In this document: positions 10,140 through 61,617 of the stretch, in pieces
Numbering within the stretch: position 1 is the stretch's first letter
Layout: each line of letters starts with the position of its first letter
From: Leptolyngbya iicbica LK
Lineage (GTDB): Bacteria > Cyanobacteriota > Cyanobacteriia > Phormidesmidales > Phormidesmidaceae
DNA length: 64,000 nt
NCBI RefSeq assembly: GCF_004212215.1
Contig: NZ_QVFV01000001.1
Coordinates: 506,814-570,813 of the forward strand
Reading direction: 5' to 3'
Notes under the pieces: generated by a model
The model's database searches: none
Told to the model about the DNA's origin: nothing
What the model saw: only the letters and a program-made list of their open reading frames with translations
Position numbers and translations under genes: made by a program

Positions 10140-10246
10140 CTTAGGACTGGGGGTTCAACTGAGTTGGACAGCCGTCTCGGCTGTCTCTAAGCAGGCAGGA
10201 TGCCTGCCCAACAAGACTTGGCTTTTAGACATGCCAGATTCTTTAG
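10140..10246 (+). repeat. Double-hairpin dispersed repeat, copy 1
   Basis: About 107 bp. It carries a first hairpin (GACAGCC/GGCTGTC around a GTCTC loop) and a second hairpin (GCAGGCA/TGCCTGC). The outer ends, CTTAGGA and CTTTAG, are degenerate inverted repeats. It matches four other copies in the window (26330, 37501, 44752, 61189). The right end includes the stop codon of the minus-strand sugar dehydrogenase gene. Confidence 0.8.
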
Positions 10247-44751: not shown

Positions 44752-44993
44752 CATGGGAATTGAATCAAAGTGTGGACAGCCGTCGTATCTATTTAGCGGG
44801 GCTTGAGATCCCCCGCTGTCGCTGCCCCCTAAAGCCCTCTGGGCACGGCTGCGCTAGGGCAAGGGGACTCCCGGCTCGAAGTCCCCCTTGTCAAGGGGGA
44901 TTCAGGGGGATCAGTAGCAGCCTGACGCTAAACAGATACCAGCCGTCTCGGCTATCCGGGGCAGACAAGATGTCTGCCCAACAAAACTGGGGT
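44752..44993 (+). repeat. Double-hairpin dispersed repeat, copy 4, split by an insertion
   Basis: Left part CATGGGAATTGAATC to GACAGCCGTC (to 44784). The right part resumes at CAGCCGTCTCGGCT (44940) and runs through CAGACAAGATGTCTG to ACAAAACTGGGG. The right terminal arm is degraded. The break is exactly at an 8-bp duplicated CAGCCGTC. Confidence 0.8.
44785..44939 (+). mobile_element. MITE-like element (155 bp) with 14-bp terminal inverted repeats and 8-bp target duplication
   Basis: Begins GTATCTATTTAGCG (44785-44798) and ends CGCTAAACAGATAC (44926-44939), inverted at 13 of 14 positions. The octamer CAGCCGTC flanks it on both sides (44777-44784 and 44940-44947), and removing the element plus one copy restores the uninterrupted hairpin repeat. 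The interior is noncoding with a CCCCCTTG/CAAGGGGG hairpin. A divergent reverse copy is at 61313-61448. No transposase of a matching kind is in the window. Confidence 0.85.
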
Positions 44994-61188: not shown

Positions 61189-61297
61189 CTTAGGAATAGG
61201 AATTTGATTAAGTGTGAACAGCCGTCTCGGCTGTTCAAGCGCAGGCGAGATGCCTGGCCCGACAAAACTTGGATTTTATAAAATCCTAATTCCTTAG
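61189..61297 (+). repeat. Double-hairpin dispersed repeat, copy 5 (most complete)
   Basis: 109 bp. Ends CTTAGGAATAGGAATTT and AAATCCTAATTCCTTAG are inverted. First hairpin GAACAGCC/GGCTGTTC, second CAGGCGAGATGCCTG, then CGACAAAACTTGG and TTTTATAAAA. It begins 2 bp after the stop of the GH13 gene and could act as its terminator. Confidence 0.85.
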
Positions 61298-61312
61298 TCG
61301 GGGGTTTGGCAC

Positions 61313-61448
61313 GTAACTGTTGAGCGTCAGGCTGCGGCTGCTCCCCCTCAATCCCCCTTAGCAAGGGGGACGCCAAACCAGAATATTCAGAGCCCCCTTG
61401 CCAAGGGGGCGGCGACAGCGGGGCTTGCGATCCCCGCTAAACTCATCC
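61313..61448 (-). mobile_element. MITE-like element, reverse copy (136 bp) with 8-bp target duplication
   Basis: Its reverse complement matches 44785-44939 over the ends and the CCCCGCTGTCGC, CCCTTG/CAAGGGGG and AGCCTGACGCT blocks. TTTGGCAC flanks it exactly on both sides (61305-61312 and 61449-61456). The ends GTAACTGTTGAGCG and CGCTAAACTCATCC are inverted at 9 of 14 positions, so this copy is older or more diverged. Confidence 0.82.
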
Positions 61449-61617
61449 TTTGGCACTGCCAAACCCCTACTAGGGAGGCAGCTTTCCAGCATGTCCATAG
61501 GGACTGCAATCCTTGCCTGGGCTGACTAGAACTGGGCTATCCGCAATCTGTACAGGGGCGTCAGTTGAGCGTTATCGCGATCAGGCATAGACGCTAGAGG
61601 CCGGTGGGGCAATCCCC

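What the first reader, a model, noticed from the sequence alone, without database searches (positions are those of the whole stretch)
44777..44947. MITE-like insertion with clear 8-bp target duplication inside another repeat
CAGCCGTC is duplicated exactly on both sides of a 155-bp element with 14-bp inverted ends (13 of 14 match). Removing the element and one octamer restores the standard hairpin of the double-hairpin repeat family. This gives both the boundaries and the order of events: the hairpin repeat was there first. An 8-bp duplication suggests a transposase of a family that makes 8-bp copies (for example IS6, IS66, IS256, ISL3 or ISAs1), supplied from elsewhere.
Basis: seen in the sequence. 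Interest (0 to 1): 0.7.

Follow-up and report, generated by a model that had tools for sequence, protein, structure and literature searches.

The report
Tiny transposon aimed at DNA hairpins
A 155-base mobile element in a cyanobacterium carries almost the same ends as a resident IS66-type jumping gene, and that jumping gene and its miniature copies nearly always insert at the tip of a DNA hairpin, an unusually precise target choice that I have not found described for this transposon family.

Summary
It is a MITE. The genome holds over 25 related elements with 8-bp duplications, including a second at 61313-61448. The likely driver is in the same genome: a 1602-bp single-ORF IS66 insertion sequence with ends GTACGTGTTTAGCGTC (14/16 like the MITE's), in about 10 copies. 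A tempting 1.65-kb "partner" was rejected; it is a MITE split by an IS4-type element. The unexpected result is the target rule: of 40 reconstructed empty sites (MITEs and IS), 31 are palindromes with at least 8 of 10 pairs whose dyad lies 0.5-1.5 nt inside one border of the duplication, against 0.6% of intergenic positions and 0 of 31 sites of other cyanobacterial IS66. A 64%-identical relative in another cyanobacterial family obeys it too, and this transposase branch is a 100%-supported clade. I know of no report of hairpin-apex targeting by IS66. Whether the enzyme reads an extruded structure or two-fold symmetry in double-stranded DNA is open; no transposition was tested.

The parts
44785..44939 (.). 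155-bp MITE (family A), no credible ORF
   Evidence: best full-length relative in the genome 81% identical
44785..44798 (+). terminal inverted repeat GTATCTATTTAGCG
44926..44939 (-). terminal inverted repeat GTATCTGTTTAGCG (reads on into TCA)
44777..44784 (.). target site duplication CAGCCGTC, left copy
44940..44947 (.). target site duplication CAGCCGTC, right copy
44774..44784 (.). left half of the interrupted host hairpin: arm GGACAGCCG plus first loop bases TC
   Evidence: intact copies at 10166 and 61216
44948..44957 (.). right half of the interrupted host hairpin: loop T plus arm CGGCTATCC
   Evidence: the dyad is the last base of the duplicated octamer (offset 3.5 from its centre)
44958..44979 (.). 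second hairpin of the host double-hairpin repeat, intact (GGGGCAGACAAGATGTCTGCCC)
   Evidence: sequence shows directly
44833..44854 (+). small module AGCCCTCTGGGCACGGCTGCGC inside the MITE where other copies have only a CCCTTGCCAAGGG hairpin tip
   Evidence: compare L001 with L002, L005, L008
61313..61448 (.). second MITE of the same family in the window (136 bp), ends GTAACTGTTGAGCG / GGATGAGTTTAGCG
   Evidence: (L010)
61305..61312 (.). duplication TTTGGCAC, left copy, one arm of GGGGTTTGGCACTGCCAAACCCC
61449..61456 (.). duplication TTTGGCAC, right copy
10166..10186 (+). uninterrupted copy of the host hairpin (GGACAGCCGTCTCGGCTGTCT)
61216..61236 (+). uninterrupted copy of the host hairpin (GAACAGCCGTCTCGGCTGTTC)

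Best explanation
The element is a non-autonomous MITE moved in trans by a transposase of a distinct single-ORF branch of the IS66 family, represented in the same genome by a 1602-bp IS. The machinery selects palindromic (hairpin-forming) DNA and makes its 8-bp staggered insertion at a fixed offset: one strand is joined within 0.5-1.5 nt of the dyad (the hairpin tip), the other 8 nt away in one arm, so the duplicated octamer is one arm up to the tip. Shown: family, ends, duplications, presence of the IS, the target geometry and its restriction to this branch among the elements compared. Inferred: that this IS (or a sister with GTATCTG ends, now lost) mobilised the MITEs; that the enzyme itself rather than a host factor picks the hairpin; that the target is a bent, unwound or extruded palindrome.
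For: IS in the same genome with ends 14/16 identical to the MITE's right end, IS66 transposase (PF03050 E 1.4e-34, NF033517 237 bits over cut-off 180); seven further IS copies whose interior is an assembly gap, six of them with perfect 8-bp duplications, each at a hairpin tip. 40 empty sites: 31 have 8 or more of 10 pairs with dyad at 2.5-3.5 from the octamer centre; intergenic control 0.56%, coding 0.33% (binomial 5e-62; collapsed to 19 target clusters, 13 qualify, 1e-25). Thirty-one sites of other cyanobacterial IS66 elements, TIR mostly GTAA, show none (Fisher 2.5e-12). A relative in another family of cyanobacteria (tnp 64-67% identical) has GTATGTG[A/T]TTAGCG ends and the same geometry. 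Two Opitutales relatives (47-49%) keep the end CGCTAAAC[A/G]GATAC. The four form one clade with 100% SH-aLRT.
Against: No MITE shares more than its terminal ~16 bp with the IS, and the MITE ends read GTATCTG where the IS reads GTACGTG, so the immediate driver may be a lost sister IS. The only assembled full-length IS copy lacks a duplication (6 of 8 mismatched) and another gap copy has a 15-bp direct repeat instead. About six of 40 sites are not at a clear dyad. Outside the genus only two insertions support the rule (L097, L197). Nothing was tested experimentally.
Confidence: 0.8

Rival explanations
1. The hairpin preference is survivorship: insertions are tolerated mainly in intergenic repeat-rich DNA, which in this genome is full of hairpins.
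For: Several targets are copies of the same hairpin repeats (five CTCCTT..AAGGAG, five of the double-hairpin repeat).
Against: Intergenic positions in the same genome satisfy the rule 0.56% of the time against 77% observed, and survivorship predicts no fixed position inside the hairpin, whereas the dyad clusters at 2.5-3.5 from the octamer centre in 31 of 33 strong palindromes. Other cyanobacterial IS66 elements show no such sites.
Confidence: 0.04
2. The enzyme recognises a particular sequence motif that happens to lie in these repeats, as REP-specific insertion sequences do.
For: Insertion sequences confined to one REP family are known (PMC1525189). Oriented sites show a mild base bias.
Against: At least 19 distinct target clusters, from GGGGCTTAAGCCCC to AGTTGACGTCAACT and TCACTTTTAGTGA; no position of the octamer is fixed.
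Confidence: 0.1
3. The MITEs are driven by a different transposase (for example the IS4-type element found inside two long copies) and the IS66 resemblance is coincidental.
For: Two 1.65-kb elements with MITE ends and an 8-bp duplication contain an IS4-family transposase (NF033590, 246 bits).
Against: That IS4 element has its own ends (CTAATC...GATTAG) and own duplications inside the MITE (CCCAGGAG; CCTCTGGGG), sits in two different MITE copies in opposite orientation, and shares no terminal sequence with them. The IS66 shares 14/16 terminal bases, duplication length and target geometry.
Confidence: 0.05

Closest known systems
IS66 family, single-ORF (ISBst12) group, e.g. ISDge4 of Deinococcus geothermalis (PMC12898284)
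   Same: IS66 transposase domain, one ORF, ends beginning GT(A/G), 8-bp duplication, ~1.6 kb
   Different: Ends GTNNNTGTTTAGCG instead of GTAACTGCTCAGCA-like; deep separate branch; palindrome-tip targeting, absent in the 31 other IS66 insertions examined here
Insertion sequences that target REP palindromes (ISPsy8, ISPa11, ISPpu9, ISPpu10, ISRm19, ISRm22; PMC1525189)
   Same: Insert into extragenic palindromic repeats
   Different: Those are tied to one REP sequence family each; IS66 is not mentioned in that survey. Here the common feature is symmetry and the position relative to the tip, not a sequence
IS-derived MITEs of bacteria with 8- or 9-bp duplications (e.g. MITEAba12, PMC6382973, abstract only read)
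   Same: Short, no ORF, inverted ends, target duplication, driven in trans
   Different: IS66-driven by its ends, with hairpin-tip target rule
Small dispersed hairpin repeats of cyanobacteria (own knowledge: Elhai and co-workers, very small mobile repeated elements)
   Same: Tiny hairpin modules nested in other repeats; one such module sits inside this MITE
   Different: Those are 20-30 nt and have no assigned transposase

Membership tests
MITE | Short, non-coding, inverted ends, target duplication | tested here: met
MITE | Multiple copies in the genome | tested here: met
MITE | Ends shared with an autonomous element | tested here: met
   14/16 identical ends with the 1602-bp IS; the two differing bases leave a sister IS possible
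MITE | Moved in trans by that element's transposase | not testable with these tools
   needs a transposition assay
IS66 family (for the 1602-bp IS) | DDE_Tnp_IS66 transposase | tested here: met
   PF03050 E 1.4e-34; NF033517 above its cut-off; DDE residues kept
IS66 family (for the 1602-bp IS) | 8-bp target duplication | tested here: met
   six copies, perfect
IS66 family (for the 1602-bp IS) | Accessory TnpA and TnpB genes (classical IS66) | tested here: not met
   a single long ORF fills the element; single-ORF ISBst12 group is accepted within the family (PMC12898284)
IS66 family (for the 1602-bp IS) | Ends beginning GTAA | tested here: inconclusive
   begins GTAC; other cyanobacterial IS66 examined begin GTAA or GTTA
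REP-targeting insertion sequences | Specific for one repeat sequence family | tested here: not met
   19 unrelated target clusters

The most novel reading that the evidence does not exclude
A branch of IS66 transposases recognises extruded hairpins or cruciforms rather than sequence and attacks one strand at the hairpin tip, so its insertions map places where palindromes extrude in the living cell.
Probability: 0.35. Interest if true: 0.8.

Novelty: new variant of a known kind. Interest (0 to 1): 0.6.

Why it matters
Target choice of IS66 elements is poorly characterised. Here one branch, with its MITEs, shows a sharp geometric rule: DNA of almost any sequence will do if it is a palindrome of about 10-bp arms, and the cut falls at its tip. 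If the enzyme reads structure, it offers a natural probe for hairpin or cruciform extrusion and a tool that inserts into terminators and hairpin repeats. It also explains why repeats in this genome are nested inside one another: hairpin-rich MITEs are themselves targets.

Tried and rejected
Two 1651/1654-bp elements with MITE ends looked like the autonomous partner; rejected because the transposase belongs to a separate IS4-type element nested in them, with its own ends and duplications. Pattern search with GTATCTGTTTAGCGTCA in 97 genomes found only MITE copies or chance single ends; relaxing the motif to GTNNNTGTTTAGCG found the IS. Elements of 171-188 bp with GTACGTG ends are not MITEs but IS copies with an NNN assembly gap. 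Closer relatives: one class-wide search, one family of G285, one order, genome contigs, viral contigs and plasmids gave only G285 and two Opitutales MAGs as full members; the Opitutales contigs end inside the IS, so their targets cannot be read. No Rfam match at the site; no solved structure related to the transposase. Literature searches for IS66 with palindrome, hairpin, terminator or MITE found no description of this targeting; the library holds open-licence papers only.

Full report
Observation. The octamer CAGCCGTC stands at 44777-44784 and 44940-44947 and encloses 155 bp whose ends match in 13 of 14 positions. Joining the flanks gives GGACAGCCGTCTCGGCTATCC; uninterrupted copies of that hairpin lie at 10166-10186 and 61216-61236.

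Family. The own genome (5.72 Mb, 16 contigs; the window is C1:506814-570813) holds many related elements. They share the ends GTNNNTGTTTAGCG and fall into at least two internal families: A (like the window element, 136-163 bp, best full-length relative 81% identical) and B (154-163 bp). Nearly all that could be delimited have an 8-bp duplication with at most one mismatch. A second A copy is in the window at 61313-61448 with TTTGGCAC duplicated. Related copies occur in other genomes of the genus and one of the family (L091, L097, L101, L104, L110, L112).

A false partner. Two elements of 1651 and 1654 bp have MITE ends and an 8-bp duplication and contain a 416-aa transposase of the IS4 family. 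They are family-B MITEs interrupted by a ~1485-bp IS with its own inverted ends (CTAATC...GATTAG) and own duplications (CCCAGGAG in one, CCTCTGGGG in the other), in opposite orientations; the sequence shows this directly.

The likely driver. Relaxing the end motif exposed a homogeneous set with GTACGTGTTTAGCG. One copy is complete: 1602 bp at C3:340180-341781, filled by a 494-aa ORF that is an IS66 transposase without TnpA or TnpB, as in the ISBst12 group (PMC12898284). Its ends GTACGTGTTTAGCGTC match the MITE's GTATCTGTTTAGCGTC in 14 of 16 positions. Seven further copies appear as 171-188-bp stretches whose middle is an NNN gap; six have perfect 8-bp duplications. Contig ends suggest more copies. 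It is the only full IS66 transposase found in this genome with that query.

The target rule. For 40 independent insertions I rebuilt the empty site (one octamer kept) and scored palindromy around every centre within 12 bp. Thirty-three have at least 8 of 10 pairs at some centre, and in 31 of them the dyad lies 2.5-3.5 bp from the centre of the octamer, that is 0.5-1.5 nt inside one of its borders. Thus the duplicated octamer is one arm of a hairpin up to its tip. Intergenic positions of the same genome meet this criterion in 0.56% of cases, coding positions in 0.33%. With similar targets collapsed there are 19 clusters, 13 of which qualify (p about 1e-25). The scoring chose the best of six offsets, and the same choice was applied to the controls. 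Outward from the dyad the pairing stays above 0.9 to the tenth pair, which is partly selected for by the score, then is 0.62 and 0.41 at the eleventh and twelfth, which are not selected. Targets include a terminator-like hairpin (GCCATGACTCATCGAGTCATGGCTTTTTTT, L146) and several repeat families.

Branch specificity. The same computation on 31 insertions of other single-ORF IS66 elements in complete cyanobacterial genomes (25-33% identical; ends mostly GTAA) gave none. A 64-67% identical relative in another cyanobacterial family (G285) has GTATGTG[A/T]TTAGCG ends and sits at the tip of GGCGCACCCCTCCGGGGTGCGCC with CACCCCTC duplicated. Two Opitutales MAG relatives (47-49%) carry the end CGCTAAAC[A/G]GATAC, but their contigs end within the IS. 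These four form a clade with 100% SH-aLRT support; the neighbouring deep branches are long and their order is unsure.

Mechanism. Shown: ends, duplications, the geometry, the presence of the IS and the contrast with other IS66. Inferred: trans-mobilisation; enzyme-borne target choice. A dimer reading a dyad in ordinary double-stranded DNA would be expected to centre its duplication on the dyad, whereas here one border is at the dyad; this offset makes recognition of the tip of a distorted or extruded palindrome attractive, but does not prove it.

Exceptions. The full-length IS copy has no duplication and the copy at L147 has a 15-bp direct repeat. Six to nine sites are weak or non-palindromic (L005, L044, L061, L076, L078, L091 at offset 1.5).

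Known or new. Palindrome-targeting insertion sequences are known for REP families (PMC1525189), each tied to a sequence; IS66 is not among them. I found no report of the rule in the papers searched, which are a subset of the literature. I file it as a new variant of a known kind.

Noticed in passing
L061:9404-10888 region and L062:1563-3047 (own genome C3 and C5): A ~1485-bp IS4-type element (416-aa transposase, ends CTAATCYTGTAGGGGTTT) is nested inside family-B MITEs, itself near the centre of a CCCCTCCCAGGAGGGG palindrome; three full copies plus several collapsed at assembly gaps or contig ends.
   Followed up: partly
L006:1122-1568, L012:960-1546, L101:1144-1517: Family-A MITEs carry a nested ~230-450-bp element with ends CTATCC...GGATAG and a 9-10-bp duplication (CCTTGAAAAG in L006), again inserted in the hairpin tip of the MITE.
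   Followed up: no
window 44833-44854; also L005, L008, L132: A ~24-nt module AGCCCT(C/G)TGGGCA(C/T)GGCTGCGC(TA) replaces the tip of a hairpin in some MITE copies and not in others, like the very small dispersed repeats reported in cyanobacteria.
   Followed up: partly
L147:1020-1236 (own genome C2:547533-547720): One IS66 copy has a 15-bp direct repeat GGTTCCTCTCCTTGG at its borders instead of 8 bp, yet its left border is at the usual hairpin tip; assembly artefact or an odd event.
   Followed up: no
L195:1453-1510 (Opitutaceae MAG): Directly beside the IS66 right end stands a 14-bp inverted repeat TTGTGTCAGGCCGC with a 29-nt spacer; the left side is missing from the contig, so its relation to the target rule is unknown.
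   Followed up: no
L068:969-1017 (own genome C3:334968-335016): A 49-bp stretch has both MITE ends facing each other with almost nothing between, perhaps the smallest derivative.
   Followed up: no
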